DNA from: Methanoplanus limicola DSM 2279
Lineage (GTDB): Archaea > Halobacteriota > Methanomicrobia > Methanomicrobiales > Methanomicrobiaceae
Assembly (NCBI RefSeq): GCF_000243255.1
Contig: NZ_CM001436.1
Span: forward strand, 2,196,957-2,260,956
Direction: 5' to 3'
DNA length: 64,000 nucleotides
Below are positions 23,699 through 40,112 of this stretch, piece by piece. A program made the position numbers and the translations under genes. Under the pieces are notes generated by a model. The model searched no databases. It saw only the letters and a program-made list of their open reading frames with translations, and was not told the DNA's origin. Position 1 is the stretch's first letter; each line of letters starts with the position of its first letter.

Positions 23699-24004
23699 TC
23701 AACACTTTCCAATTTCATTAATGATTTCACAGAGATCATTGAAATAGTAAATCTTCCGCCTGCCATCTGACTTTTCACGCTTAGATTTAATCCAACCTGC
23801 CTTCACCAACTCAGGCAGAACTCTGCCAGCATATGACTTAGTTATACCCAAAATTTCCTGTGCTTCTTCATGAGTAAATGAATTACCATTTGTTTTATTA
23901 TATAGTTTAGATAACTTTTCAAGTAAATGTTTAGGGATAGCTTCAGCCATTTCTTCATGAATGTGGATTAAAAAAATATTTATAGCCATAAGTAGTCTAC
24001 TCAT
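23699..24004 (-). CDS. Winged-helix transcriptional regulator of the island
   Basis: A 101-aa (or 83-aa) winged-helix protein: EEAQEILGITKSYAGRVLPE is the helix-turn-helix and WIKSKREKSDGRRKIYYFND the wing. The longest start is ATG 24004. An ATG at 23950 (MAEAIPKHLLEKLSK) fits the domain better and would leave room for a divergent promoter. It is encoded opposite the first gene of the Dpd-like operon, only 25-80 bp away. A perfect inverted repeat sits in that gap, so it probably represses itself and the operon. This is inferred from arrangement; the ligand is unknown. Confidence 0.78.
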   Translation of the reverse strand: MSRLLMAINIFLIHIHEEMAEAIPKHLLEKLSKLYNKTNGNSFTHEEAQEILGITKSYAGRVLPELVKAGWIKSKREKSDGRRKIYYFNDLCEIINEIGKC

Positions 24005-24015
24005 TTAGTAGACTA
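23993..24015. promoter_or_regulatory. Probable operator: perfect 8-bp inverted repeat in the divergent promoter
   Basis: TAGTCTAC-(7 nt)-GTAGACTA is a perfect palindrome with a 7-nt spacer, between the winged-helix regulator and the transglycosylase gene. A TATA-like AAATATTTATAG lies about 10-20 bp to its left and can be read on either strand. The GGAGG ribosome site for ATG 24030 is at about 24020. The palindrome would overlap the transcription start of the operon, a normal place for an archaeal repressor site. Confidence 0.65.
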
Positions 24016-24029
24016 ATTTGGAGGAATAA

Positions 24030-25058
24030 ATGGGAGAATTAAAAAGTATTATTACAAGAACCAGGGAGTTGGAAACACCTGCATTTTTTCCGGTTCATAA
24101 CTGCGGAATTAAAGGTGATGGCAATTCCCCAAAATATTGGGAAGAAATTCCGGATATGAAAACAATGATGGTAAATGCTCACTACATTAACTCAACGGCC
24201 TTCTATGAAAGATTAAAAACTCAGAAATTACATGGCAAATATGTTAAAGATGGCGTGTTTTTTGCAGACAGTGGAGGATATCAACAAAAAACAGACAACA
24301 TAACATTAGATCCAGTCCAGATCCTAAGAGTTCAGGAAAACATAGGAGCCGATATTGCTGCTACACTGGATGTACCAGTTTTTCAGGAGGATGACATATA
24401 CTACAGAAACCATTCAGATTCCATAAAAAAAAGTGTAAAAAATGCATTATTAGCGCTTGAAAAACGGGAACACGAAGATATGCTGATATATGCCACCATA
24501 CAGGGAAGCAATATAAAAGTTATGATGAATATGCTCGATTATCTGATGAAAAGAGGAAATTTTGATGGTTTTGCAATAGGTGGTCTTGTATCAAAAAAGT
24601 CAAATTATAGGGCAGTAATTGACACAATTTTTGCCATCAGGAAAAAAATTGGAGACCTCCCATTACATATTTTCGGATTGGGAGGTCCAACAATGATTCC
24701 TTTAATGGTTTACATGGGTGCCGACACTTTTGACTCATCAGCATTCTTAAAAGGAGGATCAAGCAGGTTATATTTCCTGCCAGAAGGTAATACTATTGAA
24801 TTTCAGAAGATGAAAGTAACGAAATACCTTCCCTGCATCTGTCCTGTCTGCTCAAATCACAAATTTGATGAAATACGCAATGAGAGAAAACTGATTGGTT
24901 TACATAATTTGTGGATCATAAACAATGAAATAAGAAAATTAAAAGTCTCTATTTTAGAAAATGACGTTGAAAGATATCTGGATAAAAGATTTTCAAATAG
25001 TATAGGAATAAAAAGTTCATATAGATATGCCAAATTAAAAAAGAAGGGCCTAGTATGA
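24030..25058 (+). CDS. TGT-family (tRNA-guanine transglycosylase-like) base-exchange enzyme, first gene of Dpd-like operon
   Basis: A 342-aa TIM-barrel transglycosylase. TGT landmarks are all present. FADSGGYQ gives Asp80 (general acid/base), the substrate loop has IGGLVSKK, and GADTFDSS gives the nucleophile Asp235. A zinc site is formed by C269-x-C-x-x-C274 and H292 in LHNLW. TGTs swap guanine for a 7-deazaguanine. It lacks the PUA and C-terminal domains of archaeal tRNA TGT (about 500-650 aa), so DNA is the likelier substrate. It opens the operon behind a GGAGG site, and its stop overlaps the next start (ATGA). A second family member is at 47554-49248. Which of the two is the true DpdA equivalent cannot be decided by eye. 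Confidence 0.82.
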   Translation: MGELKSIITRTRELETPAFFPVHNCGIKGDGNSPKYWEEIPDMKTMMVNAHYINSTAFYERLKTQKLHGKYVKDGVFFADSGGYQQKTDNITLDPVQILRVQENIGADIAATLDVPVFQEDDIYYRNHSDSIKKSVKNALLALEKREHEDMLIYATIQGSNIKVMMNMLDYLMKRGNFDGFAIGGLVSKKSNYRAVIDTIFAIRKKIGDLPLHIFGLGGPTMIPLMVYMGADTFDSSAFLKGGSSRLYFLPEGNTIEFQKMKVTKYLPCICPVCSNHKFDEIRNERKLIGLHNLWIINNEIRKLKVSILENDVERYLDKRFSNSIGIKSSYRYAKLKKKGLV

Positions 25059-25897
25059 GAAAAAGTATGCGTCCGGTTTCACTTAGCCGGGTTGTAGAAG
25101 TTGCATTGATTGCAGAGAAGGAAGAAGAAATTAATTATGAGAATCTAAGTGAAAAACTGAATATTTCCATCCGTAGATCCAGAGAAATAATTAATGAAAT
25201 GGATGTTATGAATCTTCTTGAAAATGATGAACAGAAATTTATTCCGACTCAGGAATGTCGAATATTTAACAGAGCTGTTTTGGAAGAAGACTGGGAATCA
25301 ATTCACTCCGTTTTGATGAATTATCCATTTTACAGCCAATTTTATAATTATATTGACAGAAACGGACCTGTTGAATTATCCAACCTTGAAAGTGGAATGA
25401 AAAATTCAGAATATCTTTTTAATAAGACATCCATCTCCATAATATCAGACTGGACTCTAAGGATTGGCCTGATACAGAGAAATGTATTCAATGATCACTA
25501 TTACAGCATTAATTCTGATTGTATAAATTTTCCGGATTCCTTTGCCAGAAATTATTCATCACTTGACACAGATGAATCAGGTTTCATGAAAAAAAGATAC
25601 ATTTCAATACCTAAATTGAGGGAGTTTACATGCGAAAATTTAAAAATTAGCAGGATTTTTTTTGATAAATCACTTATTGAACTTTACAATAAAAACATTG
25701 GAATTATTGAATTTTCAGGTGCACCAGTAACAACAAGTGCAAAAAAAAGCAAGAAAAAAATAAAATCAGCTGTTTTTTCAAACATTCCAGAATGGACCGG
25801 TGTTGAACTTAGGTCTGACAAGTATCTTAGTGGAATTAAAATTGGGAAGAAAGAATTCATATATGTAGCAATTCACGGGAGTATAAACAATGAGTAA
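25055..25897 (+). CDS. Winged-helix-containing unknown protein of the island
   Basis: A 280-aa unrecognised protein. The first 70 residues form a winged-helix-like domain (LSRVVEVALIAEKEEEINYE then LSEKLNISIRRSREIINEMD). The remainder is helical with a beta-rich end (LRSDKYLSGIKIGKKEFIYV). It overlaps the transglycosylase upstream (ATGA) and the ATPase downstream by 8 bp, so all three are made together. It sits where bacterial Dpd islands carry modification accessory genes, but it does not resemble DpdB (ParB-like) or DpdC as far as can be seen. Possibly a DNA-recognition subunit. Confidence 0.6.
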   Translation: MRKSMRPVSLSRVVEVALIAEKEEEINYENLSEKLNISIRRSREIINEMDVMNLLENDEQKFIPTQECRIFNRAVLEEDWESIHSVLMNYPFYSQFYNYIDRNGPVELSNLESGMKNSEYLFNKTSISIISDWTLRIGLIQRNVFNDHYYSINSDCINFPDSFARNYSSLDTDESGFMKKRYISIPKLREFTCENLKISRIFFDKSLIELYNKNIGIIEFSGAPVTTSAKKSKKKIKSAVFSNIPEWTGVELRSDKYLSGIKIGKKEFIYVAIHGSINNE

Positions 25898-27062
25898 CCT
25901 GGAGATTAATCTATCAGATCTGGACTATTCCAGATTAAACCTGACCGGAAATCCATTCCCTTATTCAGGTATTCCGGAGCAGACACCTGAAATATACGTT
26001 GGGCAGGAAGATGTACTGAATAAAATCAGCAATGTGCTGTCTCCGGTTATTAAATATGGCCGATCAAGCCATCTGATAATATCAGGTTCCTACGGGAATG
26101 GTAAAAGCCATACTCTCAGATATATCCAGTCACAGATAAAAAAGCAGTTTGAAAATTCAGAATTAAATAAACCGGTTGTAGGTTATATCGGACAACCCGG
26201 TGAAAGTATGTTGGATATTTACCGTGATTTTATCTACGATATTGGACCCGACTACCTAAAGAGTAATGCCCAGAAGTATATCGGGAACTGTGCTGTCCAA
26301 CTGTCCCGCGAAGGTAAGATAGAAGAAGATATTAAGAACAATGAGGGTTGGAATTCTATTGAAAGCGGAGATGTACTGTTATCAGACGTTATTCCGGAGG
26401 CTATGATAAAATTATCTGCAAAAACCAAATTTCCTGATTTTTCAAGGGCTTTCCTTAATCTGGCCTACGAAGAGAACTCCATTACATCCTGGGAATGGAT
26501 AAGTGGAGAATCTATTGAATATTCACGACGAAGAGAAATTAATCTCACAACCAATATTGGGAAAAGATTGTCCCAAAGAGCCTTTTTAGCTTTGAAAAAT
26601 ACTCTTGAATTAACAGACAACACCCCTCTGATATTATTAATTGATGAATTTGAATATATTGAAACACTTCAGACAAAAACCAAACAGAATATGCTTAATT
26701 CGATAAGACATCTAATGGATCTAAATCCATTTGGACTTTCAATTGTTATGGCCTGTGCGCCCGAGGTCTGGGAGAAAATAATATCTGAATATCATGCATT
26801 CTCAGAAAGAATTGGTAAAGAAGTAAATTTAAAACCCCTTACAAGAGAAAATGTTGGAGAATTTATTATATCTTATCTCAATTTAAAAAGGAAATTGGGG
26901 AGTGATTCACTGGGCCCCTTTACAGATTCAGCTATTGATAAAATATTTGTTCAGGGTCAGGGCAATGCCAGACAGATCATTACAATCTGCAGCAATCTTT
27001 TGGATTTATCAATAAAAGAAGGAAAAAAAATAGATGAAGATTTTGTGAGTAATTTATTATGA
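25890..27062 (+). CDS. AAA+ family ATPase (Orc1/Cdc6- or BrxC-like core)
   Basis: A 390-aa ATPase. It begins with LNLTGNPFPYSGIPEQTPE and YVGQEDVLNKI, the entry motif of several STAND/Orc-like ATPases. Walker A is GSYGNGKSHT (about residues 65-74), Walker B is LILLIDEFEYIE (about 246-257), and a sensor-like LSIVMACAPEVWE follows. The C-terminal part reads like a winged helix or lid (GNARQIITICSNLLD). It overlaps the previous gene by 8 bp, and its stop overlaps a 20-codon frame. DpdB in the bacterial system is reported to use ATP; this protein could play the equivalent part, but that is inference from context. Confidence 0.72.
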   Translation: MSNLEINLSDLDYSRLNLTGNPFPYSGIPEQTPEIYVGQEDVLNKISNVLSPVIKYGRSSHLIISGSYGNGKSHTLRYIQSQIKKQFENSELNKPVVGYIGQPGESMLDIYRDFIYDIGPDYLKSNAQKYIGNCAVQLSREGKIEEDIKNNEGWNSIESGDVLLSDVIPEAMIKLSAKTKFPDFSRAFLNLAYEENSITSWEWISGESIEYSRRREINLTTNIGKRLSQRAFLALKNTLELTDNTPLILLIDEFEYIETLQTKTKQNMLNSIRHLMDLNPFGLSIVMACAPEVWEKIISEYHAFSERIGKEVNLKPLTRENVGEFIISYLNLKRKLGSDSLGPFTDSAIDKIFVQGQGNARQIITICSNLLDLSIKEGKKIDEDFVSNLL

Positions 27063-27121
27063 ATTTCCTCAGGATAAAATCAAAAAATATATTAAATATT
27101 AATTTAAATCTAAATTTATGA
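27059..27121 (+). CDS. 20-codon linker reading frame coupled at both ends
   Basis: The stop of the ATPase gene and the start of this frame share ATGA (27059-27062); its own stop shares ATGA with the next gene (27118-27121). The frame encodes 20 residues (MNFLRIKSKNILNINLNLNL), rich in Asn and Leu from AT-rich DNA. The double overlap would let ribosomes pass from the ATPase gene to the next gene without a gap. A regulatory or coupling leader is more likely than a functional peptide. It may also be chance. Confidence 0.4.
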   Translation: MNFLRIKSKNILNINLNLNL

Positions 27122-28008
27122 AGTTTGGGGAGGTTAATTCATATATACAGGATATTATCAGAAATAATAACTATTTAATCATAATAGATACTCAATCATC
27201 ACAACCCTTTGGTTCCCTTCGTTCAGTACCTCTTTTACATGAGATTTCAGGATGTATGGATTTGAGTATTTTTGATCCGGAAGCAGCTATCAGCAGGAAT
27301 TTTCCATTAAAATTAATACAGGATATTTCTTTTCAGGACCTTAGCAATTGTTCTGATAAGGGCAGTCTTCTCTCTTTGATAATTCTTAATTCAGGATATG
27401 AAGAAAAGACTGGATATGTTTCTTCAATAATTGAATCAAATACACCAAAAATATTTGTTGGGGATTCTATCGGTTTTACTCCTAAAAACTGGAGATACTC
27501 CGGGAAAAGCATAGAGGAAAAATCAATACAGATTCCTTTAAACTATAACAGGGTTTACTCTAAATTTATTGAGGATAACTGTTTACAGGAATTCCAATTT
27601 AAAACAACTAAAAACGTCTTCTTTAATAATCTTTATAGACTGGAATATCGACTGTTGGGTAAAAAATCAGCTCAAGTCTCTGATCTTTTTAATTTTGGAG
27701 AGGAAATACTCGCGATTACACCAATATGGGATATTCTGGTAGAATTGTTAGGTAATATTAAATCTTCAAATGATAAGTTCAATGATATTTCCATTTCTCT
27801 TAAACCATGGATTGAAGATGAAAATGATGTTAAATCTGTTTCTGAGAAACTATACAATATTTTGAACGAGAATGATTTTGATCCATCTTTAATTATTGAA
27901 ACCAGAGATGGATACATAAGCAATAATCATGAAAATTTTCTGCAGATTTGTGAATCCTGTAAAGATAATGATATTCAGGGCTATATCTCAGAAATTATTG
28001 GGGAATAA
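27118..28008 (+). CDS. Unknown island protein
   Basis: A 296-aa protein of no recognised family. It starts YIQDIIRNNNYLIIIDTQSS, continues with an alternating strand/helix half (PKIFVGDSIGFTPKNWRYSG) and a helical C-terminal half (WDILVELLGNIKSSNDKFND). No catalytic motif, membrane segment or signal is visible. Together with the two genes before it, it makes a block that is not part of the familiar DpdG-K order. It lies 2 bp before the DpdG-like gene. Confidence 0.62.
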   Translation: MKFGEVNSYIQDIIRNNNYLIIIDTQSSQPFGSLRSVPLLHEISGCMDLSIFDPEAAISRNFPLKLIQDISFQDLSNCSDKGSLLSLIILNSGYEEKTGYVSSIIESNTPKIFVGDSIGFTPKNWRYSGKSIEEKSIQIPLNYNRVYSKFIEDNCLQEFQFKTTKNVFFNNLYRLEYRLLGKKSAQVSDLFNFGEEILAITPIWDILVELLGNIKSSNDKFNDISISLKPWIEDENDVKSVSEKLYNILNENDFDPSLIIETRDGYISNNHENFLQICESCKDNDIQGYISEIIGE

Positions 28009-28010: not shown

Positions 28011-28805
28011 ATGGCAGTAGATATTTTAGATCAACCAAACGGGGGCATTCTTGAATCCCTGTGTCAGTATATTTCAACAACTGACGGAAGCGTAAATAAA
28101 AAAGAATTGTTATCCAAATTTACTTCAGGAAATAAAAATTCAATTGAGGCTCATTTAAAAATTCTCGATGCTCTGGATATAATCATAAACTCTGAAAATG
28201 ATATAATACTCAGGGATTGTAAGTATCTTGATATATGTGATCCCTATTCTGAGAATTTTTCATTACATTTCAAGAGCCAGTTATTATATTCAATCAGAAA
28301 CTCAGACGAAGAACATATTAATTACTTTTCTCATTTTTTAGGAGAGTTATTTGCTAATCCGGTCATTAATGAAAACAGTCTCGAAGAATATTTAATTCAT
28401 GCCAGAGGAAAATCAGGAATTATTGACCCGTCTGGTGAAAGGTTAGGTGGCAAGGTTGACTTTTTAAAGCAACTACTTACATACTTCAACTTTATAACAA
28501 AACTTGATGATAGAAGAATAATGATTTCCTTTCCCCTGGATTTGTTTGAAACAATAGTTAATCTGTTACTAAAAGATTCAGAACCAAAAGATATCTTCTC
28601 CGGGTTTTTGCCTTCTCTTGAATCAGAATTCTTTCCGGTATTTACAGACACCGATAAGACAAAAATTCTTCCAGTACTTATGAAAACTCTCTCTCTTAAA
28701 GACGAATTATCTTCAATAGAATTTGATTATCTCTCAGATGGAGGCAGACCACTGAACATAGAGACTAACAACAAAGAATATAATTTAATCATGAGGGTGG
28801 ACTAA
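28011..28805 (+). CDS. DpdG-position protein (winged-helix-like N-terminus)
   Basis: A 264-aa protein with an N-terminal winged-helix-like region (CQYISTTDGSVNKKELLSKF, HLKILDALDIIINSENDIIL) followed by a helical body (FSHFLGELFANPVI, FLKQLLTYFNFITKLDDRRI). The family cannot be read from sequence alone. The size of about 260-300 aa and the position directly before a DpdH-like ATPase match DpdG of the bacterial restriction module. It begins 2 bp after the previous stop and ends 1 bp before the next start. Role inferred: adaptor for the ATPase. Confidence 0.6.
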   Translation: MAVDILDQPNGGILESLCQYISTTDGSVNKKELLSKFTSGNKNSIEAHLKILDALDIIINSENDIILRDCKYLDICDPYSENFSLHFKSQLLYSIRNSDEEHINYFSHFLGELFANPVINENSLEEYLIHARGKSGIIDPSGERLGGKVDFLKQLLTYFNFITKLDDRRIMISFPLDLFETIVNLLLKDSEPKDIFSGFLPSLESEFFPVFTDTDKTKILPVLMKTLSLKDELSSIEFDYLSDGGRPLNIETNNKEYNLIMRVD

Positions 28806-28806: not shown

Positions 28807-31800
28807 ATGAACATTTCAGAAATAATAAGTAAAGACTTAGTAAATCAGACATTTACAATAGAGTGTTTCCAGAAGACCGAAGAAACCTTCTTTAAAACAC
28901 ATTATCCTCTGAGTTTTTATCATAAAAACCCTGGTTCAGGAGAAATTGATAGATTAGTTTCAGAGAAGGATTTTCTTGAACAATGGGACTTTAATTTAAG
29001 TGAAAGAAAAGATAGCAGAAGTTATATCCGTCCTTATGTAATATGGGGAGCCCCAGGAACCGGAAAAACAGAATTATGCAGACTTCTGGAACTTGAAATC
29101 CCAAAAAAATGCTCCGATTACGAAACAATACGTGTTTCAAAGCGTGAACTTGCAATGGGAGGAATTCTGGGAGTTGCCGAGAGAATATCCGGAAAACAGG
29201 TTGATATTTCAGAAAAATTGCTGCAGGATCGGGGAGGAACATCAGTTTCCACATTCTACAGATTCATTTTGGGTTTAATATATGACGAAGATTCTTCATC
29301 AATCACTATTTCTGCAAAGAATGAAGAAGGACGTGCGTTTGCTTTTGAATATCTTGCAGAAAAAGTAATCTATAATATAAGAGAAAGAGTTGATAAATTT
29401 AAAAATACCGAAGATTTTTCTACGGTTGAATCATCTTTAGAATTTTTTACTTCAAAAGATAAAGTAGATTGTACAAAAGATCCTGAATTGATAAAACACG
29501 GAGTAAGCATAAATCTAATTGATTATGATAAAGTAAACAAAACATTATATAATAAATTAATTAACAACTTCTATGATACAACAAATGTTCAGGAATTAAT
29601 ATTTAAATATATCAAAAAAGCAAATGAAAATAACAAAATTCCGGTACTTATATTTGATGATGTTACTTTCCTTGGAAATCTTATTGATGAATTTATAACA
29701 GTCATTACTGATATCTCCACAGATGAAGGTTATATCTGTGATTTTATAATCGGAACAACTACTGCATTTTATGAAAACAAGATCAAAGCCAGCTTTTTTG
29801 GAACAGCTGAAGCAAGACTCCATGAAGTTAAATTAAGTCTTAGCGATTCTGAAAACAGTAAAAATGCAAACTGGCTCGTAGGTGAAAAAGGATTAAATCA
29901 CTTTTTGCATTTCACTCAGAAATATTTAAAGGCGTCATATAACCCATCATATGACAATTTAAGTGAACTTGATTTCAGAAATCAGTTCAGGGATTATTTT
30001 AAGGATAATAAATTTGTCTATTATCCTTTTTCAAAAGATTTCCTCATAAAATTATATGGGAAAATTAAAACCGATATGCTGCTTAGTAAAAATCAGAGCA
30101 TATCCCTGACTCCCAGATTTATGATTCAGATATTAAGAAATACAATTTTACAGTCATATGATAATGATTTACCGCCAAGTTGTTTTGTCGATAATTTTCT
30201 TACTCTTAATACAACTGACAATTTCTCCGGACTACTTGAAGAAGATAAAAGAAGATGGTTTAATTTCTATAATACTTTATGGTGGTATGGGAATATTGAA
30301 GGAGGAAAAGTAACTCTTAATAGCTCATTTTTATCTGAGTTGGGTGTTCATGAAATTCCTCAAAAATATATTAATGCCGATACGGTTCAGGCAAGCCTTA
30401 ATTTATCAGAATCAAATCTGAACCTCATCAGTGACGGTGGTAGTTCTGAGAGAACAAAAGTTGAAGCAATTAATCCAGTAAGACAGGAGGTTCAGCAGAA
30501 TGTAAGACTATGGTGCAAAGGCGAATCAAATGATCTTCCCCTTAATTCAATCAAAGATGGATTTAATTTAATTCTGAAAAAATTAAATGGTGACCTTTCC
30601 GGGAGTAAAAATTATAACAACCTGATAAATCGCAAATCTTCAAGAAAAGAGGGTTTAGAAATTATTTCGTATAAACCAAAAGGAAACCGGGAGTGCGAAT
30701 TTCATATTGGCGGAGATGGCAACTGGAAGAACAGAATCACAATCATTCCATCAGATCAAAAAGATTCTTTTAAAGATGAAATTTCAAGATATAAGGGATT
30801 ATTCCTTGCATTTACAGTTGATGACTTTGTAGATCTTTACGAAATCGGAACTGAAAATTCAGTTGATAATACCATTAATGAATTCCTTAGTAAAAATATA
30901 GTCAGGATTAAAAGTTGTCTGAATAATTACAATATTTCATTAAAAAAGACCTTTGAAGAAGAACTAAAAAATACTACTGAATCCTACATCCTGTCAGCAT
31001 ACATTACAGCAAATTCGCTCTTTAAATCCAAATTATTTTTAGAACCTATAATTGATGCCAAAGATATTTTAAGAATTCATGAAATAGAAAGGGATATCAG
31101 CTATAATGTATGGTCACCTGAAATACAGAGAATTTTTCTAGAAGGTACAGTTAAGCACGACAAACTACTAAAAATTGTTAATGGTCTGTTTCTCAGTACA
31201 TTTTCTATAAGAGGTTCGGGTGAATCTGCTGGAGTAATCGACTACCCTCTCCTTGAAAGGGCCTGGAAAGATATTAAGGACAATCCATATTACCCTCTAA
31301 TAAACTCAGATGTTCCAAATAAAAGATATAAAATTGAAAAAGCTGATATTGAATTTAAGGATTTATCAGCCAAATTAAAATTATTTGCAAATAAATGTCA
31401 GGGACTTTCATTTGATTCTTCTTCAGAAGATCTTTTGGAAATTGAAGATAAATTCAGCCAGATGTGTTATGGGGATAATCTGATAAAACTTTTAAATGAA
31501 TTGAGAAGCAATCTTTCAACAACACAGTATAATAATTCCATATCAAACATAATTCCAGTACTAAAAAAGCAGGATTATAAATTGTATGTGGATTACATCA
31601 TTAAAATTCAGGATGAATTATCAGACCTTGAAAACAGCGAGGTTGATATATTCTCTAAAATAAAGGAGTTCCTTGTAACTATAAACTTCAAGTACATCTG
31701 CAATCTTGATGAGTATAAGGCAATGGGATATCTTGATAGATTAGTCAGTGGTTTAGCCAGTGAAACAGATTACAAATCTCAGATTAATTATGATATAAAT

Positions 31801-31851
31801 AAAATCAGAAATTCTCTTGATGAATTTTTAATTATGGATGGTGATTTCTGA
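28807..31851 (+). CDS. dpdH: DpdH-like large P-loop ATPase
   Basis: A 1014-aa ATPase. Walker A is WGAPGTGKTEL (about residues 79-89) and a Walker B-like VLIFDDVTFLG lies at about 279-289. The remaining 700 residues are mostly helical with charged segments and no known catalytic motif. In the bacterial Dpd island DpdH is an ATP-binding protein of about this size that lies between DpdG and DpdI and is part of the restriction half; order and size agree here. It shares one base with the next gene (TGATG). The assignment comes from synteny plus the P-loop, not from a profile search. Confidence 0.68.
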   Translation: MNISEIISKDLVNQTFTIECFQKTEETFFKTHYPLSFYHKNPGSGEIDRLVSEKDFLEQWDFNLSERKDSRSYIRPYVIWGAPGTGKTELCRLLELEIPKKCSDYETIRVSKRELAMGGILGVAERISGKQVDISEKLLQDRGGTSVSTFYRFILGLIYDEDSSSITISAKNEEGRAFAFEYLAEKVIYNIRERVDKFKNTEDFSTVESSLEFFTSKDKVDCTKDPELIKHGVSINLIDYDKVNKTLYNKLINNFYDTTNVQELIFKYIKKANENNKIPVLIFDDVTFLGNLIDEFITVITDISTDEGYICDFIIGTTTAFYENKIKASFFGTAEARLHEVKLSLSDSENSKNANWLVGEKGLNHFLHFTQKYLKASYNPSYDNLSELDFRNQFRDYFKDNKFVYYPFSKDFLIKLYGKIKTDMLLSKNQSISLTPRFMIQILRNTILQSYDNDLPPSCFVDNFLTLNTTDNFSGLLEEDKRRWFNFYNTLWWYGNIEGGKVTLNSSFLSELGVHEIPQKYINADTVQASLNLSESNLNLISDGGSSERTKVEAINPVRQEVQQNVRLWCKGESNDLPLNSIKDGFNLILKKLNGDLSGSKNYNNLINRKSSRKEGLEIISYKPKGNRECEFHIGGDGNWKNRITIIPSDQKDSFKDEISRYKGLFLAFTVDDFVDLYEIGTENSVDNTINEFLSKNIVRIKSCLNNYNISLKKTFEEELKNTTESYILSAYITANSLFKSKLFLEPIIDAKDILRIHEIERDISYNVWSPEIQRIFLEGTVKHDKLLKIVNGLFLSTFSIRGSGESAGVIDYPLLERAWKDIKDNPYYPLINSDVPNKRYKIEKADIEFKDLSAKLKLFANKCQGLSFDSSSEDLLEIEDKFSQMCYGDNLIKLLNELRSNLSTTQYNNSISNIIPVLKKQDYKLYVDYIIKIQDELSDLENSEVDIFSKIKEFLVTINFKYICNLDEYKAMGYLDRLVSGLASETDYKSQINYDINKIRNSLDEFLIMDGDF

Positions 31852-32624
31852 TGTCTTTAAATTATCAGGAAGAATTAATCAAAATTACTGGTTTCCTGGA
31901 AGAAAAAAATAAATTCGCTGAAAAAAACGAGAAGATCAGAAAATTACAAAGAGAAATTTCTGATTCAAATTTAAAGAGATCATGTATTATTCAATCTAAA
32001 TTCCTGACAAAGATAAAACCAGATGAAAATGAATTAAAAGAGACCCTGAAAAATTTATATAATACCCACCAATACTTATCCCGCAAATTAAAAAACAATC
32101 AAGAAGGGTCAGTTTGCAATATAGAAGGATTGGATATAGAGGAACTGGAAAAACTATCAAATGATTTTGATACTTTCAACACTCAGGTAAGAGAACTTAA
32201 TCGCAACAACAGTAATTTAATAAATAATATAATCTCTGAACTGGACAAAAGGAAAGAAAATATTTCCGAATTTGCATCTCAGTATCCTGAACATAATATC
32301 AATCCGGATGTCTTCGATGAAACAAAGGAATATATCAGGTCAAACATTTCAAATTCAGAGGCAGCATTTCAATATTTAACAAACAATGGTTTTGATTACT
32401 CCTTAAAGGAATGGAATGAATATTTTTCAAAATGTGAGGCCGAGGAAGAGAAAACCAAAGGTCTTGAAATAAATGATGTTTCTAAAGAAACAAAAGAATT
32501 CCTTGATAGAATGAAGGCTGGACATCGGTCAAATCTACATAATATTACCACTACAATATTGTCTGAAATTAATGATAATTATCCGGATTTGGCAAGGAAT
32601 ATTTCTGTGAGGCTTAATAAGTAA
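31851..32624 (+). CDS. DpdI-position coiled-coil protein
   Basis: A 257-aa, highly charged, helical protein with long coiled-coil-like stretches (FAEKNEKIRKLQREISDSNL, LEKLSNDFDTFNTQVRELNR). There are no membrane segments and no catalytic motif. It overlaps the DpdH-like gene (TGATG at 31849-31853). Its position between the H- and J-like genes and its size fit DpdI, whose function is unknown. It may bridge the ATPase and the helicase. Confidence 0.6.
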   Translation: MSLNYQEELIKITGFLEEKNKFAEKNEKIRKLQREISDSNLKRSCIIQSKFLTKIKPDENELKETLKNLYNTHQYLSRKLKNNQEGSVCNIEGLDIEELEKLSNDFDTFNTQVRELNRNNSNLINNIISELDKRKENISEFASQYPEHNINPDVFDETKEYIRSNISNSEAAFQYLTNNGFDYSLKEWNEYFSKCEAEEEKTKGLEINDVSKETKEFLDRMKAGHRSNLHNITTTILSEINDNYPDLARNISVRLNK

Positions 32625-32744
32625 CATCATTAAAATCATATCCATAATTATCAAGAAAAAGATGAATTATCATCAAATGCACAAATAATTCAAACAAAGT
32701 TTATGAGGAATCTTATTATACAACAGGATTCGGAGAGAAAACAA

Positions 32745-35700
32745 ATGACAGATGATAAAATAAATATATTATTTCAAATTTCTAAAATTTCAAGAAATAA
32801 ATGGGCTAAAAAAGAAGATGAGATCGTCACGAAAAATGGGATAATAGAGAATATATCCAACGAGGATTTAAATAGTCATATTTCCGAACTTGAAAAAAAT
32901 GGTTGTATCTTAGTTAACGGTGAAGAAATAACAAATGAGATTCCTTTTTCTAAGATTATTGAAGAGATATTAATCAAAAATTCCAATAAAGATTTTGAAT
33001 CAGAAAATTTTAATAAGAAACTATCCAAAATTTTCGATGGTAATACAGAAACAGTTGTTGAATTATTGGAAGATTTGGGCCTCATAAAACTATCGGATAA
33101 GAAAGTAATTCTGGATTCATCGTTATATAAGGGTAAAGAAAAAAAAGAAAAGAGAAAGAGAGATGAATTATTAGATAATCTTTTAACATTTATTGAAAAA
33201 GAGGATGCTCACCAGATTCGCTATGGAATTTATGAAACCGAAATTAGAGGAAATGCTCTGTTCTGTGAATCAATTATTGAAAATGACCCGTTATTTATTA
33301 AAACAGAATATGGTTTAAGAAGTTTAATGAATGATGGCTTTCTTTTACCATTAAATAGAGAAGGAAACGTATTGGACTGGGAATTCAGAAGCCGTATCGC
33401 TGAAATCATAAGGTTGCTTAGTAAACTTCGGCAGAGATTTTGGGGTCAAAAAAGTCAAGATTCCAAAAAACTAACTCAAGGGGTTAAACTCGAAGTGATC
33501 GACAGAAAAACACCTACGAGAAATATAGACCTTGAACAACCAGTTTATGATATGCTATCTGAGTTTAAATCTTATCCATCAGGTGTAGAGCAAAACCTCA
33601 GGACAATTACTGATAATTTCATTGAAGCATTAAAAAAGAACAAATATGATCAAATTGCAGATTTTCAGTACAGAAGTTTTACCCACATATTTCAAAAATT
33701 AATAGAACAAGATTCCGGTTATAAAGGAATGATTTTAACAGCCGGAACCGGTATGGGAAAAACTCTCGCATATATAGTTCCAATTCTTTATTACATCCTC
33801 CTTAATCAGGATAAAAAAGGAACAAAATTGATCAATGTATACCCCAGAACTAAACTTGCAGAAAATCAGATTGAAACATTTATAAAAATATTATATCACA
33901 TAAACAAAAACAATGACAAAAAAATAACTATTGGAATTGATTATTCCGGAACGCCATATGGATGGACAGATTTTGGAAAAGCTCCAGAATCTGGTAAAAA
34001 AACACTCTATGAGAATAATATAAACAGATTATGGAAATATGAAAATACATCAGAAGGAGGAAAATATATATGTCCCTATGCAAAATGTCCTAAATGTGAT
34101 AAAAACCTCTTTGTTAAGATAAGGAATATTGGACAAAATTCTCCATTAACCTGTGAATGTGGAGTTGAAATAGATTATGTTAAATATAGTAAAGAAGATT
34201 TTGCGAATGAACCACCAGATATTTACATCGTTACCACAGAAAGTCTTAACTCACGTCTGATAAATACAAAATACCAAAATCTTTTTGGAACAAAAAACTA
34301 CTGTGCTCCAAAACTGATCATGGTTGATGAAGTTCATCTTCATACATCATTGAACGGTACCCAGGTGGCATATCTTATACAGCGCCTGCTCAAAAGAATA
34401 TCTCATGCACATGAGACCTCCGGTTCACCATTAGTTCTTGGACTAAGTGCGACTATTGGAAATCCAATTAAATTTTTCAGTGAATTTACCGGAATACCAG
34501 AACATAATATAGTACATGAAGAACCCAAAGACAATGAAATGAAGAAGAGTGGAGTTGAACATTTAGTATTTGTCAAACCTGAAAGTGGTGAAGATACTGA
34601 TGTTCTGTCAAACCTTCTACAGACCTGCATGTGTGTTCTTCATAACTTCTCTTATTCTTCAGGAAATAAATATAAGGCTCTTGGATTTGTAGATTCACTT
34701 GATTTAGTACAGAGATGGAAATCTACGCTCTGCGATGCCGATAATATCAAAAAGCTATATTTATTAAGAAATCCTCCTTCAATTGAGGGTCATAAAGATA
34801 TTAAGGATTATTTTGGAATTAAACCGGAAAGATGTAGTGATTGTGCAAAACAGGTAAACCGCAACTGTATCTTTTACCAACAGGGAGAATGCTGGTGGTT
34901 TATGCGGTATGGCAATCCAACAAAGAAAGATAGTCGATATATAGACAATCTCAAAATTAAATCCAAAACAGGGAAAAGTGGATATGTACCCGACAATTAT
35001 GACCTACTAATAACAACATCAGCTATGGAAGTGGGTTATGATGATCCCAACATTATGTGTGTTTTCCAGTATCAATCTCCTATGAATATTGCAAGTTTTA
35101 CACAGAGAAAGGGACGGGCCGGACGTGGTCCAGAAAACAGACCCCTCACTGTCACCGTATTAAGTCCATATAGAACTAAAGACATATTCTATTACCAAAA
35201 CCACCATAACCTTGTTGAACCTCTATTCGAAAAACCACCGATAAATACAGATAATAAAAGCATTAAAAAAATTCATGGATTTTATGGAACTCTTGATATT
35301 ATAGCCTATAAATGTAATAATGAAGCCCAGGAACTCGCTAACGAAACTTTCCCATCTCAGACAAAAAAAGACGATGCTGACAAATTAGAGATAAATGACA
35401 ATATTACAAAATATATATGCGAACTTCTTAATACTGATAAAAATGATGAAATAATTGGAAGCATTAAAAATCTCATTTCAAACTACAAAAGAAAAGCAAA
35501 AAATGATAGCCCGGACTATGGTATTACTCCTATAAAAGCCCTCCCTAATGATCTTCCAAATAATCTCTTTTCAAGTATAAATCTCCCCTCCGTTGATATT
35601 AAATATGCGGGAGATAATAGTGAACTTGATAAAAATATAGAAATAAATCTGGGACTTTCAGAAACCTCACCAGGCAATGTAACATATAGATGGTTTGGAA

Positions 35701-38468
35701 AAAAAGATGATATTTCAGCTTATTGGATCCCTGGAAGAGACAACCCCGGGGAGGATTATACAAATGCCAATATTAATCTTAAAAAGATGGATACGCGATA
35801 TAATTGGTTATATGATGATCCAATCATAACAGAAATAAAAGTAACAAATAATATTCCCAAATCATTAAGAAAATTATTACCAAATCTAGATGATAATTCA
35901 ATTTTAGAGATTATTCGCCCAAAGAGCATCAGAGTAGTATCATTTATTAGAAGAAATGAATATGATAAAAATAGAAATGGTGGGGGAGATAAGGATGGTA
36001 AGGAAGATAAAAAAGATGAGAAGTATTCGAAATGGATTTACTCTCACGATGATTCAAAATTATATAAGGATATTAAAGAGTACAAAGAAGACCATCCTGA
36101 TGAAAACACAACTTACGGTAATCTAAATACTAAAACAAAAGGTTATCCAATAACATTTTATGATGTAACATTAAAAAAAGGAAACAAAAATCCAAATAAT
36201 CTCGTAGAATATAATAAAACTTCATCAAATTACCCCCACTTTAAGAGAGCCTCTGAACTTGGAATATTTAAAGATATATTCTCTGAAGTTAACTTTGCCA
36301 ATAGCGATACCGGAGAATATATTAATGCCCAAAAGATTATTCTGGGTTCAACGGTTACATTTTCAACAGGAAAAGGTAAAAATGAAGAGATTTTTGGATA
36401 TACCAAAGGAAGTAAAGATTGTGCACTTGGATATTGTATGGAAACCGAAGGGGTTGATCTTTGGTTTGATCTATCAAATTTGGGTGATGAACTAAATATA
36501 CATAATATAAAAAAGAGGGACAGATCATTTTACAATGATCTTAAAATTAAAATCTTCAAATTTGAAGTATTCAACGAGTTTAAACTGGCAAATTCAATTA
36601 ATACATTTTCAATAAATGCCTTCTTAAATGTCTATCTATTTATATATGGCCATGAAGAAAATTTAGAAAAGCTCAACAATTATATTTATCATGAATGCAA
36701 TGATTCTCAAATTTCTGAAGAATTCAGAGAGGTTCTTGAAGAAAATTTCAATTACAATTCACTTACAGAAGATAATCTCTTTTCACTCTTAAATGACCAA
36801 AAGTTTATGAGCACAGTAATTAATTTCCATAAAACTGTTCTTTCTGGGGAAAACGAAGAATTGATAAACAAAAGGCTTGAAGATATTTATGTCCACTCTA
36901 TGAAACATGCTCTAAAATCAGCTTTCGTTATTCTTGGAGGTTTTGATTCAGAAAGGGACCTTTGTGGCTGGACATACCTAAACTATGATTATAATGATTT
37001 AGAGCGTGACAATAATGATTTAAAGCACACATACATATTTGAACATGGGATGCATGGAACAGGGGCATTCAGAAATATTTACGATAATTTTAGTCAAAAT
37101 CCTCATTTTGTATGGAATTTTCTGGAATCTCAAATAGGTGAGTGTCCAACTGCCGAGGAGGAGCATTTTCTTAGAGATATTCTTCAATTAGAAAATGACG
37201 ACCTTAAAGAATTATCAGAAAAATATCAGGAAATCATTAAATCTACAGATTCTAAGACCAAAGATATAAATGATTTAATCTCGTGGTTTAGGCAGAAATA
37301 CCATTTTGAACTTAAAGAAGAGAATATCAGAGCACTTAGTCGCCTTTTTTCCAAACCAATTGAAATTGGTGAAGAAGAAATTGAAAACCATCAAATGTTC
37401 CGTGAGTTAAATATTAGCCTTATCAACGACCTGAAAAAAGAATACGGTTGTGAGCCTACAGTTGAAGAAATTAAGGGCAGATGCTATCGTATTGTCACTG
37501 GAGGAGATGAAAATGAACTTCAGAACTGGAATAAATTTTATAAACTTCTTTCTAAAAATTTAGACTCGGATTATGAAGAAATTAAACAAATTACTAAAGA
37601 AGTTATTGATAATACAGTTTGTCTTAAGGAATTTCTTGATAAATTAACTCCTGAAAATAAGAAGCATCTACTTAAAATTTCAGAAGAAGAAAGGAACGGG
37701 AAAATACGTAAAATATTAAAATTAGAAAATTCAGAGGAGAATGATGAAATAGTTGATAAAATAATATCAGTCCTGTTTCCATATGATCACGGTAAAAATA
37801 CATATGAAATTGAAGATAAACTCAGTAAAAAGAATAAGGAACAGGTATTAAATAAGTCATCAGATAGTTCTGAAGCAAACAGAGATAAAAACGAGATACT
37901 TAAAAATAAAAAAATCATAGGATATTTAAATTCGGAATTAACCACGTTTGAACATTATTGTAATATTCACAATGGAGAAAATCTTTTCCCAGAAATCAAT
38001 AATATTTTAATAAAAAAAGCCTTTCTTGAAGAGGTTGAAAAGAGATTGTTAACCACATGTAAAGATGGTTGCCCATCCTGCTTACACACGCTTTGTGATA
38101 TTGACGGAGACCCACGAAGGAATAACATTTTATTGAGCCGTAGACTTCTTAGGATGGTAATAAAAGACTCAAAGAAACAAAATACAATAACGATTGAAGA
38201 TAGGAATATCGATGATGAATATTTTGAAAAAATTAAAAGTAGGCTTATTGCAAAATTAGAAGAAAATTACCTTGCATATGTAGTATATCCATTTAATAGA
38301 TCAGAAGATGTTTCTCAATTAATTCACCAACTAATGATAGAACGAATCGAAATTGAAGAAGAAACTTATGGAATTATGATTAATTCAGGTGGCTATCATA
38401 AAATATCAGTACATGAAAAGGATGTTTATTACGAATTAGGTTTTCATTGCAGGAGAATGTCGCTATGA
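32745..38468 (+). CDS. dpdJ: DpdJ-like giant DEAD/DEAH helicase with DUF1998 end
   Basis: A superfamily-2 helicase of about 1907 aa. Walker A is AGTGMGKT (near residue 335), the DEVH box is MVDEVHLH (near 527), motif III is LGLSATIGNP, and motif VI is QRKGRAGRGP (near 787). Inserted cysteine clusters (CPYAKCPKC plus CECG; CSDCAKQVNRNC plus GEC) probably bind metal or an Fe-S cluster. The C-terminal CKDGCPSCLHTLC is the DUF1998 motif. ATG 32745 is preferred to 32703 because GGAGAG lies 8 nt before it. Proteins of this build are DpdJ in bacterial islands, implicated in restricting unmodified DNA. The stop overlaps a 49-codon gene by ATGA. Confidence 0.78.
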   Translation: MTDDKINILFQISKISRNKWAKKEDEIVTKNGIIENISNEDLNSHISELEKNGCILVNGEEITNEIPFSKIIEEILIKNSNKDFESENFNKKLSKIFDGNTETVVELLEDLGLIKLSDKKVILDSSLYKGKEKKEKRKRDELLDNLLTFIEKEDAHQIRYGIYETEIRGNALFCESIIENDPLFIKTEYGLRSLMNDGFLLPLNREGNVLDWEFRSRIAEIIRLLSKLRQRFWGQKSQDSKKLTQGVKLEVIDRKTPTRNIDLEQPVYDMLSEFKSYPSGVEQNLRTITDNFIEALKKNKYDQIADFQYRSFTHIFQKLIEQDSGYKGMILTAGTGMGKTLAYIVPILYYILLNQDKKGTKLINVYPRTKLAENQIETFIKILYHINKNNDKKITIGIDYSGTPYGWTDFGKAPESGKKTLYENNINRLWKYENTSEGGKYICPYAKCPKCDKNLFVKIRNIGQNSPLTCECGVEIDYVKYSKEDFANEPPDIYIVTTESLNSRLINTKYQNLFGTKNYCAPKLIMVDEVHLHTSLNGTQVAYLIQRLLKRISHAHETSGSPLVLGLSATIGNPIKFFSEFTGIPEHNIVHEEPKDNEMKKSGVEHLVFVKPESGEDTDVLSNLLQTCMCVLHNFSYSSGNKYKALGFVDSLDLVQRWKSTLCDADNIKKLYLLRNPPSIEGHKDIKDYFGIKPERCSDCAKQVNRNCIFYQQGECWWFMRYGNPTKKDSRYIDNLKIKSKTGKSGYVPDNYDLLITTSAMEVGYDDPNIMCVFQYQSPMNIASFTQRKGRAGRGPENRPLTVTVLSPYRTKDIFYYQNHHNLVEPLFEKPPINTDNKSIKKIHGFYGTLDIIAYKCNNEAQELANETFPSQTKKDDADKLEINDNITKYICELLNTDKNDEIIGSIKNLISNYKRKAKNDSPDYGITPIKALPNDLPNNLFSSINLPSVDIKYAGDNSELDKNIEINLGLSETSPGNVTYRWFGKKDDISAYWIPGRDNPGEDYTNANINLKKMDTRYNWLYDDPIITEIKVTNNIPKSLRKLLPNLDDNSILEIIRPKSIRVVSFIRRNEYDKNRNGGGDKDGKEDKKDEKYSKWIYSHDDSKLYKDIKEYKEDHPDENTTYGNLNTKTKGYPITFYDVTLKKGNKNPNNLVEYNKTSSNYPHFKRASELGIFKDIFSEVNFANSDTGEYINAQKIILGSTVTFSTGKGKNEEIFGYTKGSKDCALGYCMETEGVDLWFDLSNLGDELNIHNIKKRDRSFYNDLKIKIFKFEVFNEFKLANSINTFSINAFLNVYLFIYGHEENLEKLNNYIYHECNDSQISEEFREVLEENFNYNSLTEDNLFSLLNDQKFMSTVINFHKTVLSGENEELINKRLEDIYVHSMKHALKSAFVILGGFDSERDLCGWTYLNYDYNDLERDNNDLKHTYIFEHGMHGTGAFRNIYDNFSQNPHFVWNFLESQIGECPTAEEEHFLRDILQLENDDLKELSEKYQEIIKSTDSKTKDINDLISWFRQKYHFELKEENIRALSRLFSKPIEIGEEEIENHQMFRELNISLINDLKKEYGCEPTVEEIKGRCYRIVTGGDENELQNWNKFYKLLSKNLDSDYEEIKQITKEVIDNTVCLKEFLDKLTPENKKHLLKISEEERNGKIRKILKLENSEENDEIVDKIISVLFPYDHGKNTYEIEDKLSKKNKEQVLNKSSDSSEANRDKNEILKNKKIIGYLNSELTTFEHYCNIHNGENLFPEINNILIKKAFLEEVEKRLLTTCKDGCPSCLHTLCDIDGDPRRNNILLSRRLLRMVIKDSKKQNTITIEDRNIDDEYFEKIKSRLIAKLEENYLAYVVYPFNRSEDVSQLIHQLMIERIEIEEETYGIMINSGGYHKISVHEKDVYYELGFHCRRMSL

Positions 38469-38614
38469 ATAATAATGTCCATTATTGGCATAAATTTTTT
38501 ATTCGCTATTGTGGGGCAGTTTATGATATTACCGGAAGAAAATTTCCAAATTCAGTTCAGATAAATCTTCTCCTAAAGGGAAATGATAAAAACGGAAGGC
38601 TATTGCATGAGTAA
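38465..38614 (+). CDS. Hidden 49-aa gene between the J- and K-like genes
   Basis: An ATG overlapping the helicase stop (ATGA at 38465-38468) opens a 49-codon frame: NNVHYWHKFFIRYCGAVYDI, then TGRKFPNSVQINLL and a basic tail, ending TAA at 38614. That end overlaps the PLD gene start (ATG 38607) by 8 bp. Coupling at both ends and a natural, mixed amino-acid composition argue for a real small protein. No family is recognised. It is Trp/Tyr/Phe-rich and basic, so it may bind nucleic acid or one of its neighbours. Confidence 0.6.
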   Translation: MNNNVHYWHKFFIRYCGAVYDITGRKFPNSVQINLLLKGNDKNGRLLHE

Positions 38615-40112
38615 CAGTTCAGAGAGTAAAAAAGAGCCATCATCTCAATTTATACTTAATTATCCAGAAGAAGAATCTATCTCAGAACATCTTCTCGATT
38701 TTTTTTGTGCGGAACTTATATATGCAAGGATGAAGGATAAAGATCCTAACAGTCTCTGGTTAATCAGCCCCTGGATTACAGAAAGTAAATTTTCATTTTC
38801 TTCACGTGGATGTTTTGCAGATCTTTTCCCGGGATACTCACGGGGTACCATTTATTTTAGTGAAATCCTGAATAAATTTTTGGAATACGGAACTGAGATC
38901 AATTTTGTCTGTTACCCACCTCACAAACTCGTAGATATAAAACAAATTTATAAATATCATGATTCTTTATGTAAAATCAACTCAATTTGTAAATCCAATA
39001 AAGAAAACAAAACAGAAACTGAAGACGATAAACAAAACCTGATTGAAGAGATAATTAATAATTCCAGGAAAGAATTATCATCTGCACGGGAAAAAGCAAA
39101 GGGTAAGTCCTATGTTATTTCCTTTATCAGAAAAATTGAACAGAATGCACCTCCTGAAGCAAAAATAAATATATATTATAATGAGCGTCTCCATGCAAAA
39201 ATAATTCTTGGTAAAAATGCCGCTCTTTTTGGTTCTGCTAATCTGACACACAGTGGTTTTAACTGGAATGATGAACTTTTGTCCTATGAGACAAACCCGG
39301 TAATTTTGGATAGGATGTTAAAGGTTGCCGGCAAACTTTCGAATTCCGAATATAAAGATAATAAAAAGAATAATAACGATAATAGTTCTGAAGAAAAAAA
39401 TAATGGCAATATCTGGAAATTAGCATCTGATAAATATTCTGCAAAGGAAAAATTTGAACAGATAATAGGTCATGCTAAACTTGAAAAAATAATTTCTTCT
39501 GAACAACTCCCATCTGAAATACAGGACATTCTCAAGGATTGTGGAATTTCCGGACTTGACAGAAACACTTATCAAACCTTTGAAGATGAAAATAAAGAGG
39601 ATATAATTACTGATAAAAAAGATAAATCTGAATCTGATATTAAAGAAAAAGATGAAGTACCAAAAGTTCGTTCTAAAGAATCTAAGGGACCCTCACCAGT
39701 TAACTCAAATGAATCCCACCAATCAGAAGGAAAAGAAGAAAATAAATCAACAAATTATGAGATTGGGGAATATAACGGGCATCCTTTACTAAGTTTCCCG
39801 GAAATAAAAATGAATTTTGGAAAAGCTAAATGGGAGAAGATTCTTGAGGCCTATGATGCCGGGGTACTAAATAACTATATAGAAATCAGTGAACAATACT
39901 CAAAGGATAAAATCGAAAAAGAACTTGATTCCGATGATAAAGCCAAATGGTATGTATATTATAATAATACTGGACCGGCCTTATGCATATATACCTATAA
40001 TACCTATAATACCTATAAGAAGGAAAAAAAATTCAGCTTCATGTATAAAAAAGCCAAATTTATCTTAGAGAATATCGATACTATTCGGAAATTTTGTAAA
40101 AAATCATCGTAA
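38607..40112 (+). CDS. dpdK: DpdK-like phospholipase D-fold nuclease; 3' end rewritten by an insertion sequence
   Basis: About 501 aa. ATG 38607 is preferred to 38583 because the body begins at MSNSSESKK. The N-terminal half is a PLD-fold domain with one HKD-type motif (RLHAKIILGKNAALFGSANL, His and Lys followed by the Ser/Asn pair), as in DpdK-type nucleases. A charged, low-complexity linker (about 255-380) leads to a C-terminal domain starting YEIGEYNGHPLLSF, which also exists as a separate gene at 47158-47511. Three 9-bp repeats (ACCTATAAT) lengthen that domain. The last codons (CKKSS, stop) come from the left end of an IS21 element inserted at about 40095, so the native C-terminus is lost. 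Confidence 0.75.
   Translation: MSNSSESKKEPSSQFILNYPEEESISEHLLDFFCAELIYARMKDKDPNSLWLISPWITESKFSFSSRGCFADLFPGYSRGTIYFSEILNKFLEYGTEINFVCYPPHKLVDIKQIYKYHDSLCKINSICKSNKENKTETEDDKQNLIEEIINNSRKELSSAREKAKGKSYVISFIRKIEQNAPPEAKINIYYNERLHAKIILGKNAALFGSANLTHSGFNWNDELLSYETNPVILDRMLKVAGKLSNSEYKDNKKNNNDNSSEEKNNGNIWKLASDKYSAKEKFEQIIGHAKLEKIISSEQLPSEIQDILKDCGISGLDRNTYQTFEDENKEDIITDKKDKSESDIKEKDEVPKVRSKESKGPSPVNSNESHQSEGKEENKSTNYEIGEYNGHPLLSFPEIKMNFGKAKWEKILEAYDAGVLNNYIEISEQYSKDKIEKELDSDDKAKWYVYYNNTGPALCIYTYNTYNTYKKEKKFSFMYKKAKFILENIDTIRKFCKKSS
39993..40019 (+). repeat. 9-bp tandem repeat ACCTATAAT in the dpdK-like gene
   Basis: Three consecutive 9-bp units (the last ends AAG) code for Thr-Tyr-Asn triplets. 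The duplicate domain at 47158-47511 lacks this expansion (it reads YTYQEQKFSFM), so it arose after duplication, probably by slippage. Confidence 0.8.

What the first reader, a model, noticed from the sequence alone, without database searches (positions are those of the whole stretch)
25055..28008. Unknown wHTH - AAA ATPase - unknown block fused into the Dpd-like operon
Three genes with tight overlaps (ATGA, 8 bp, then via a 20-codon frame) connect the transglycosylase to the DpdG-K-like genes. The ATPase has clear Walker A and B; the other two have no recognisable family. They sit where modification partners are expected, so they may supply target recognition and ATP use.
Basis: partly seen in the sequence, partly recalled or inferred. 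Interest (0 to 1): 0.7.

Follow-up and report, generated by a model that had tools for sequence, protein, structure and literature searches.

The report
Partner genes of archaeal DNA-marking enzyme

Summary
The three ORFs are real, but they are not one trio. The conserved unit is TGT2-wHTH-AAA: a 342-aa transglycosylase (archaeosine-TGT catalytic core, active-site and zinc residues intact, no tRNA-binding domains), a protein with two tandem winged helices, and an ORC/Cdc6-BrxD-type ATPase. All 24 intact archaeal loci examined (16 genomes or contigs, 8 haloarchaeal plasmids) have these three genes in this order, with a 4-bp ATGA overlap between the first two, plus a separate DpdA. The window's DpdA, fused to a DpdC-like domain, lies at 47554-49248, beyond an IS cluster. 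In 393 genomes of the phylum, the ATPase and the DpdA catalytic part co-occur in 13. Incomplete copies all look truncated. DpdB is absent from these islands.

The third gene (U296) is the first gene of a restriction-side operon, U296-G264-DpdH-cc-DpdJ-DpdK; it occurs in 6 of 24 loci, always with DpdH-like. The same modification block pairs with at least three different restriction cassettes.

Best reading: an archaeal Dpd variant in which TGT2 plus wHTH-AAA stands in for DpdB in site-directed preQ0 insertion. Haloarchaeal members overlap the published BRIGADE systems; I did not find this module described in the papers I could read.

The parts
23699..24004 (-). divergent MarR-type regulator (101 aa), recurrent next to TGT2
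   Evidence: Pfam MarR 1.7e-5; homologues at the same place in G054, G034, G070 and in L023, L024
23993..24015 (.). perfect 9-5-9 inverted repeat TAGTCTACTCATTTAGTAGACTA between MarR and TGT2, likely operator (inferred)
   Evidence: TAGTCTA-N9-TAGACTA also upstream of TGT2 in G034 and G070; 1 match in the window with up to 2 mismatches, 0.17 expected
24030..25058 (+). TGT2: 342-aa transglycosylase, archaeosine-TGT catalytic core without C1/C2/PUA
   Evidence: TIGR00432 3.7e-53, DpdA model only 1.6e-6; aligns to 1iq8 25-347 of 582 with D80=D95, D235=D249, C269/C271/C274/H292
25055..25897 (+). wHTH: two tandem winged helices (9-78, 85-153) plus a C-terminal part of low model confidence
   Evidence: AF2 model; VIA Z 12.1 to MarR over 70 residues, Z 10.1 to RPA32C over 63
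25890..27062 (+). AAA: BrxD/ORC-Cdc6-like ATPase, 390 aa
   Evidence: PF10923 1.5e-9, PADLOC BrxD 7.8e-11; Walker A/B invariant
27083..27099 (+). AT-rich TATA-like tract about 27 nt before U296: possible separate promoter (inferred, weak)
   Evidence: sequence
27118..28008 (+). U296: unknown protein, first gene of the restriction-side operon
   Evidence: homologues in 6 of 24 loci, all with a DpdH-like gene
28011..28805 (+). G264: protein at the DpdG position
   Evidence: gene order; 18-21% identity to syntenic haloarchaeal proteins; no DpdG family hit
28807..31851 (+). DpdH-like ATPase, 1014 aa
   Evidence: NF041065 4.6e-5, N-terminal only; syntenic homologues 1e-88 to 1e-122
31851..32624 (+). 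257-aa protein, probably coiled-coil, at the DpdI position
   Evidence: gene order
32703..38468 (+). DpdJ-like (YprA-family) helicase, 1921 aa
   Evidence: PADLOC DpdJ 4.6e-133
38583..40112 (+). DpdK-like PLD-family protein, 509 aa
   Evidence: PADLOC DpdK 5e-23
40205..46732 (.). IS-element cluster separating DpdK from DpdA
   Evidence: transposase and IstB-like ORFs, read by eye
47158..47511 (+). 117-aa ORF repeating the C-terminal domain of the DpdK-like gene
   Evidence: HMM match 3.5e-76
47554..49248 (+). DpdA fused to a DpdC/DUF6884-like domain: the first TGT of the system
   Evidence: PADLOC DpdA 2e-81, DpdC 2.9e-8; catalytic and Zn residues kept
49249..52209 (-). SF2 helicase, convergent with DpdA; membership of the system uncertain
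   Evidence: PADLOC PbeA 2.7e-56; homologue in the G034 island

Best explanation
TGT2-wHTH-AAA is the DNA-targeting part of the modification half of an archaeal Dpd-type (7-deazaguanine) modification-restriction system. Shown: TGT2 is an archaeosine-TGT catalytic core with intact catalytic and zinc residues but no tRNA-binding domains; wHTH has two tandem winged helices; AAA has intact Walker motifs; the three genes stay together and with DpdA, in islands that often also carry preQ0-synthesis genes, and without DpdB. Inferred: wHTH recognises DNA sites, the AAA uses ATP to load and distort DNA, and this presents a guanine to TGT2 (and/or DpdA) for exchange with preQ0, which the DpdC-like domain may turn into dADG. 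The set thus does the job of DpdB. The separately encoded restriction cassette (here U296-G264-DpdH-cc-DpdJ-DpdK) attacks DNA lacking the mark.
For: All four genes in 24/24 intact loci. In the same 393 genomes: AAA in 14, DpdA catalytic part in 13, TGT2 in 15, 13 shared. The exceptions G174, G029 and G319 are truncated copies, two of them next to transposases. ATGA overlap TGT2/wHTH in 24/24. QueC/QueD/QueE/FolE or a queuosine-precursor transporter in many islands. DpdB model absent in 15 of 16 genomes, one weak partial hit off the island. TGT2 residues and missing tRNA-binding domains; wHTH fold; ATPase motifs. The restriction-side AAA1118 of cassette A is a reciprocal homologue of the modification AAA, E 1e-8 to 1e-20, and its upstream 268-aa partner shows weak similarity to wHTH (hhalign E 2.5e-4, prob. 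43%). Near-identical modification blocks sit beside different restriction cassettes: 98.0% over 11.1 kb, G385 vs Halorientalis.
Against: No chemistry or DNA-modification data. Two virus-like contigs carry DpdA with Que genes but no TGT2/wHTH/AAA, and a phage DpdA modifies DNA without such partners (PMC6884629), so the chemistry need not require them. In bacteria, short TGTs also occur without DpdA nearby, in Deinococcus beside helicases, so a second TGT need not be a DpdA partner there. The wHTH C-terminal half has low pLDDT. Loci are related by descent and transfer, so the counts overstate independence.
Confidence: 0.62

Rival explanations
1. TGT2-wHTH-AAA is an independent second modification system: TGT2 marks its own sites without DpdA, and both marks are read by the restriction side.
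For: TGT2 is catalytically complete. In Deinococcus, short TGTs occur beside DEAD helicases without DpdA nearby, so a short TGT plus an ATP-driven motor can stand alone.
Against: In archaea no intact TGT2 module was found without DpdA.
Confidence: 0.25
2. TGT2 and DpdA form a mixed TGT dimer like eukaryotic QTRT1/QTRT2, one subunit catalytic and one for substrate grip, with wHTH-AAA as loader. (A sub-version of the best explanation; not exclusive of it.)
For: TGTs act as dimers (PMC6884629). 13/13 DpdA genomes of the phylum sample also have TGT2.
Against: Both proteins keep nucleophile and zinc ligands, unlike the non-catalytic QTRT2 subunit (established knowledge). No complex was modelled.
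Confidence: 0.2
3. TGT2 is a tRNA enzyme or a regulator and wHTH-AAA belongs to restriction (sensing or helicase loading, as proposed for BrxD-BrxHI).
For: The AAA is nearest to BrxD and is homologous to the restriction-side AAA1118.
Against: wHTH-AAA overlaps TGT2 in operon layout while restriction cassettes are exchanged around it. TGT2 lacks the PUA part, and the genome has another, longer TGT.
Confidence: 0.12
4. One reading: U296 is also a modification partner.
For: Adjacent and co-directional in the window.
Against: U296 is absent from 18 of 24 loci and always accompanies DpdH-like, on the opposite strand to TGT2 in G217.
Confidence: 0.03

Closest known systems
Dpd system (DpdA-K; bacterial 7-deazaguanine DNA modification-restriction)
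   Same: DpdA, DpdC-like domain, DpdH-like, DpdJ, DpdK; preQ0 genes in relatives
   Different: No DpdB; a second, archaeosine-type TGT with wHTH and BrxD-like AAA; DpdC-like domain fused to DpdA; DpdG and DpdI positions filled by proteins their models do not recognise, and no DpdD, DpdE or DpdF recognised in the operon
BRIGADE (Bell et al. 2025 preprint, PMC12458937)
   Same: 7-deazaguanine cluster with DpdJ/YprA helicases and PLD or PD-(D/E)XK nuclease; several haloarchaeal loci here fit it
   Different: BRIGADE usually has two YprA helicases and was found only in halophiles; the window is a methanogen-order genome with one DpdJ in the operon; the main text mentions no second TGT, wHTH or AAA
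BREX-related capture (BRC) systems (PMC12839542)
   Same: A TGT together with an ORC/Cdc6-type ATPase and a DNA-binding protein
   Different: BRC has PglZ, DUF6079, DUF4007, STAND and HerA; none of these was recognised by the Pfam/PADLOC scans of the window operon
BrxD (BREX type 2 ATPase)
   Same: AAA fold family; suggested helicase-loader role
   Different: Far below the BrxD equivalog cutoff (40.6 vs 350 bits); no other BREX protein recognised in the operon
Archaeosine tRNA-guanine transglycosylase (ArcTGT, TgtA)
   Same: Catalytic domain, active site, zinc site
   Different: No C-terminal C1/C2/PUA tRNA-binding domains; 180 vs cutoff 350 bits; in a defence island

Membership tests
Dpd system | DpdA transglycosylase | tested here: met
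   47554-49248, PADLOC DpdA 2e-81, catalytic residues kept
Dpd system | DpdB (DGQHR domain) partner | tested here: not met
   PDLC02811 absent from the window genome and from the islands of 15 related genomes
Dpd system | DpdC domain | tested here: met
   DpdC 2.9e-8 and DUF6884-type domain fused to DpdA; activity not tested
Dpd system | DpdJ helicase and DpdK PLD | tested here: met
   DpdJ 4.6e-133, DpdK 5e-23 in PADLOC; both below the NCBIfam equivalog cutoffs
Dpd system | DpdH | tested here: inconclusive
   N-terminal match only, 4.6e-5
Dpd system | 7-deazaguanine in DNA | not testable with these tools
   needs mass spectrometry
BRIGADE | Two YprA-like helicases in the system | tested here: not met
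   One in the window operon; another YprA-like ORF at 4904-7471 lies about 17 kb upstream of TGT2
BRIGADE | Halophilic archaea | tested here: not met
   The window's order includes a Methanoregula contig; haloarchaeal relatives do fit
BREX-related capture (BRC) | HerA, PglZ, DUF6079 and DUF4007 | tested here: not met
   no such hit among the nine operon proteins
BrxD | NCBIfam equivalog score | tested here: not met
   40.6 bits vs cutoff 350
ArcTGT | Catalytic Asp pair and zinc ligands | tested here: met
   aligned to 1iq8
ArcTGT | C1/C2/PUA tRNA-binding domains | tested here: not met
   TGT2 ends after the catalytic domain

The most novel reading that the evidence does not exclude
Archaeal Dpd systems use two different transglycosylases together. 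A stripped-down archaeosine TGT, aimed at DNA by a winged-helix/ORC-like ATPase pair, works with DpdA, and the restriction half uses a paralogous winged-helix/ATPase pair, so marking and cutting read related DNA sites through duplicated loaders. The marking cassette is swapped freely between restriction cassettes.
Probability: 0.3. Interest if true: 0.78.

Novelty: new variant of a known kind. Interest (0 to 1): 0.6.

Why it matters
If right, it shows how a tRNA-modifying enzyme could be turned to DNA: lose the tRNA-binding domains and gain a DNA-binding protein plus an ATPase in trans. It gives archaeal Dpd-like and BRIGADE systems their missing modification partner in place of DpdB. It also offers haloarchaea as a testable setting, since eight loci lie on plasmids of named haloarchaea. 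It flags a database label too: these ATPases are annotated as 'BREX system ATP-binding domain-containing protein' although no other BREX genes are annotated in the regions read.

Tried and rejected
U296 structure: the single-sequence model failed (pLDDT 33), so no fold claim is made; no PDB sequence match and no viral relative. The wHTH C-terminal half: pLDDT mostly under 60, not interpreted; Foldseek gave no match at E below 0.001. The general rule 'DpdA goes with DpdB or a second TGT': on plasmids, 12 DpdA records have DpdB/DGQHR, 11 a second TGT, 0 both, 2 neither (Fisher p 2e-5, or 0.015 for bacteria only; two of the 12 are by annotation alone). I do not rely on it for bacteria, because Nostoc MS1 and two Deinococcus plasmids carry short TGTs without DpdA nearby, and the bacterial short TGTs do not group with archaeal TGT2 (long branches). 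BRC membership was considered from PMC12839542 and rejected. G264 vs wHTH and U296 vs wHTH homology: no support. Virus and phage searches for AAA and TGT2 found nothing. The genome-contig scan uses short patterns and missed most haloarchaea, so absence there means little.

Full report
What is there. The three ORFs at 25055-25897, 25890-27062 and 27118-28008 exist. The TGT/wHTH overlap is ATGA (4 bp) and the wHTH/AAA overlap is 8 bp; between AAA and the third gene there is a 55-bp gap. The 20-codon frame bridging it has no support beyond being open.

Families. The TGT scores 3.7e-53 against archaeosine TGT and only 1.6e-6 against DpdA. It aligns with residues 25-347 of the 582-residue archaeosine TGT 1iq8, with D80/D235 at the catalytic D95/D249 (roles of these residues from general knowledge) and C269, C271, C274, H292 at the zinc site, and it stops before the tRNA-binding domains. 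The genome holds one other hit to it, a 486-aa TGT that is presumably TgtA. The ATPase is BrxD/ORC-Cdc6-like. The 280-aa protein has no family hit above a cutoff; its model shows two tandem winged helices, residues 9-78 (Z 12.1 to MarR, rmsd 1.3, 70 aligned) and 85-153 (Z 10.1 to RPA32C, rmsd 1.4, 63 aligned), with an unreliable C-terminal half. The 296-aa protein has no hit and could not be folded.

A second TGT. Searching the own genome with the DpdA-like protein found next to the relatives showed a DpdA-DpdC fusion in the window itself, 47554-49248, confirmed by PADLOC DpdA 2e-81 and DpdC 2.9e-8. It is separated from the operon by an IS cluster at 40205-46732. The system therefore has two TGTs; both keep their catalytic residues.

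What travels together. In relatives of the same order (G054, G034, G070), TGT2-wHTH-AAA is kept at 54-65, 40-46 and 58-60% identity while U296, G264 and the DpdH-like gene are absent and a different cassette (268 aa, AAA1118, DEAD helicase, 690, PD-(D/E)XK 1062, HEAT 505) lies alongside. Two more (Methanoregula UBA471 and another euryarchaeon) carry a third cassette with a 983-aa ATPase and a 606/659-aa protein that I read as HerA-like by eye. Haloarchaea carry the first two kinds and some further variants. In all, 24 intact loci have DpdA, TGT2, wHTH and AAA, and the TGT2/wHTH overlap is 4 bp in each.

Co-occurrence test. In 393 genomes of the phylum the AAA was found in 14, the DpdA catalytic part in 13 (three further hits there cover only the DpdC-like part) and TGT2 in 15, with 13 shared. 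G174 keeps the last 56 residues of TGT2 before wHTH-AAA and has a transposase-family ORF just upstream; G029 loses everything after wHTH at a transposase; G319 loses wHTH after 54 residues at an unrelated ORF. These look like decayed copies. The Fisher p of 2e-23 treats genomes as independent and overstates the case. On plasmids, the 8 records with a full-length AAA match are all haloarchaeal, and all 8 also have TGT2 and DpdA.

DpdB and preQ0. The DpdB model finds nothing in 15 of 16 genomes and a weak split hit on another contig in G070, whereas bacterial DpdA loci commonly show DpdB next door. Islands often include QueC, QueD, QueE and FolE, or a queuosine-precursor transporter. The window island lacks them, but the genome has QueC elsewhere, as expected for an archaeosine maker.

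U296. Homologues occur in six loci only, each with a DpdH-like gene in the order U-G-H-cc-J(-J)-K; in G217 they are on the strand opposite to TGT2. It belongs to the restriction side. DpdH-like without U296 occurs once (Natronosalvus).

Modularity. An 11.1-kb block from QueC to AAA is 98.0% identical between G385 and Halorientalis litorea, but the former lies beside a DpdJ/PLD cassette and the latter beside the 268-AAA1118 cassette. G335 and G419 share a 6.2-kb block at 88% with different cassettes. The modification AAA and the restriction AAA1118 are reciprocal homologues over two segments that flank an insert specific to the modification AAA, and the 268-aa partner of AAA1118 shows weak long-range similarity to wHTH. 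This suggests, without proving, that both halves use related DNA loaders.

Mechanism. Steps shown: gene content, intact motifs, loss of tRNA-binding domains, winged-helix fold. Steps inferred: DNA-site recognition by wHTH, ATP-driven presentation of the guanine by AAA, exchange for preQ0 by TGT2 and/or DpdA, conversion by the DpdC-like domain, and restriction of unmarked DNA by the DpdH-J-K cassette. A phage DpdA inserts preQ0 without such partners (PMC6884629), so the partners more likely set where, not whether, DNA is marked.

Relation to known systems. Bell et al. (PMC12458937) describe BRIGADE, Dpd-like systems of halophiles with usually two YprA helicases; several haloarchaeal loci here fit. 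Their main text does not mention a second TGT, wHTH or AAA; their supplements could not be read. The window, from a methanogen order, fails two BRIGADE features. The BRC systems of PMC12839542 also combine a TGT with BREX-like ATPases but have other defining parts. I therefore call this a new variant of the Dpd kind. That the module is undescribed is limited to what I could read: Thiaville 2016, Yuan 2018 and Gedara 2023 were not held.

Noticed in passing
L087:22630-23280, L088:14190-14849, L090:22344-23000: A CARF-domain regulator, Csa3, sits divergently just before the U296 homologue of the restriction operon on three haloarchaeal plasmids, hinting at control by cyclic oligonucleotide signalling.
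   Followed up: no
window 23993-24015: Perfect inverted repeat TAGTCTACTCATTTAGTAGACTA between MarR and TGT2; the outer half-sites recur upstream of TGT2 in G034 and G070.
   Followed up: partly
window 21709-22329: 206-aa protein with motifs like a CHAT/caspase-type peptidase (HLSGHGT, GFSACDLG), read by eye; partial homologue in the G054 neighbourhood.
   Followed up: no
window 17311-18531: 406-aa protein with an HNH-like motif (by eye); a 48% identical homologue lies beside the G070 Dpd island.
   Followed up: no
window 49249-52209: 986-aa SF2 helicase, PbeA-like, convergent with DpdA; homologues in the G034 and G343 neighbourhoods.
   Followed up: partly
window 47158-47511: Second copy of the DpdK-like C-terminal domain just before DpdA, across the IS cluster from the first.
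   Followed up: no
L115:3832-9403, L116:10933-16594, L122:11974-14861: Bacterial short TGTs (about 265-315 aa) next to DEAD/DEAH helicases; in Deinococcus ficus without DpdA nearby. Possibly a separate TGT-helicase system.
   Followed up: partly
L085:11576-12049: EVE-domain protein (a type that can read modified bases) between DpdA and the winged-helix regulator in Haloarcula sinaiiensis.
   Followed up: no
L093:869-10351: The Natronococcus CG52 plasmid carries a second, partly broken copy of the island with the same TGT2 and wHTH protein accessions as the intact one.
   Followed up: no
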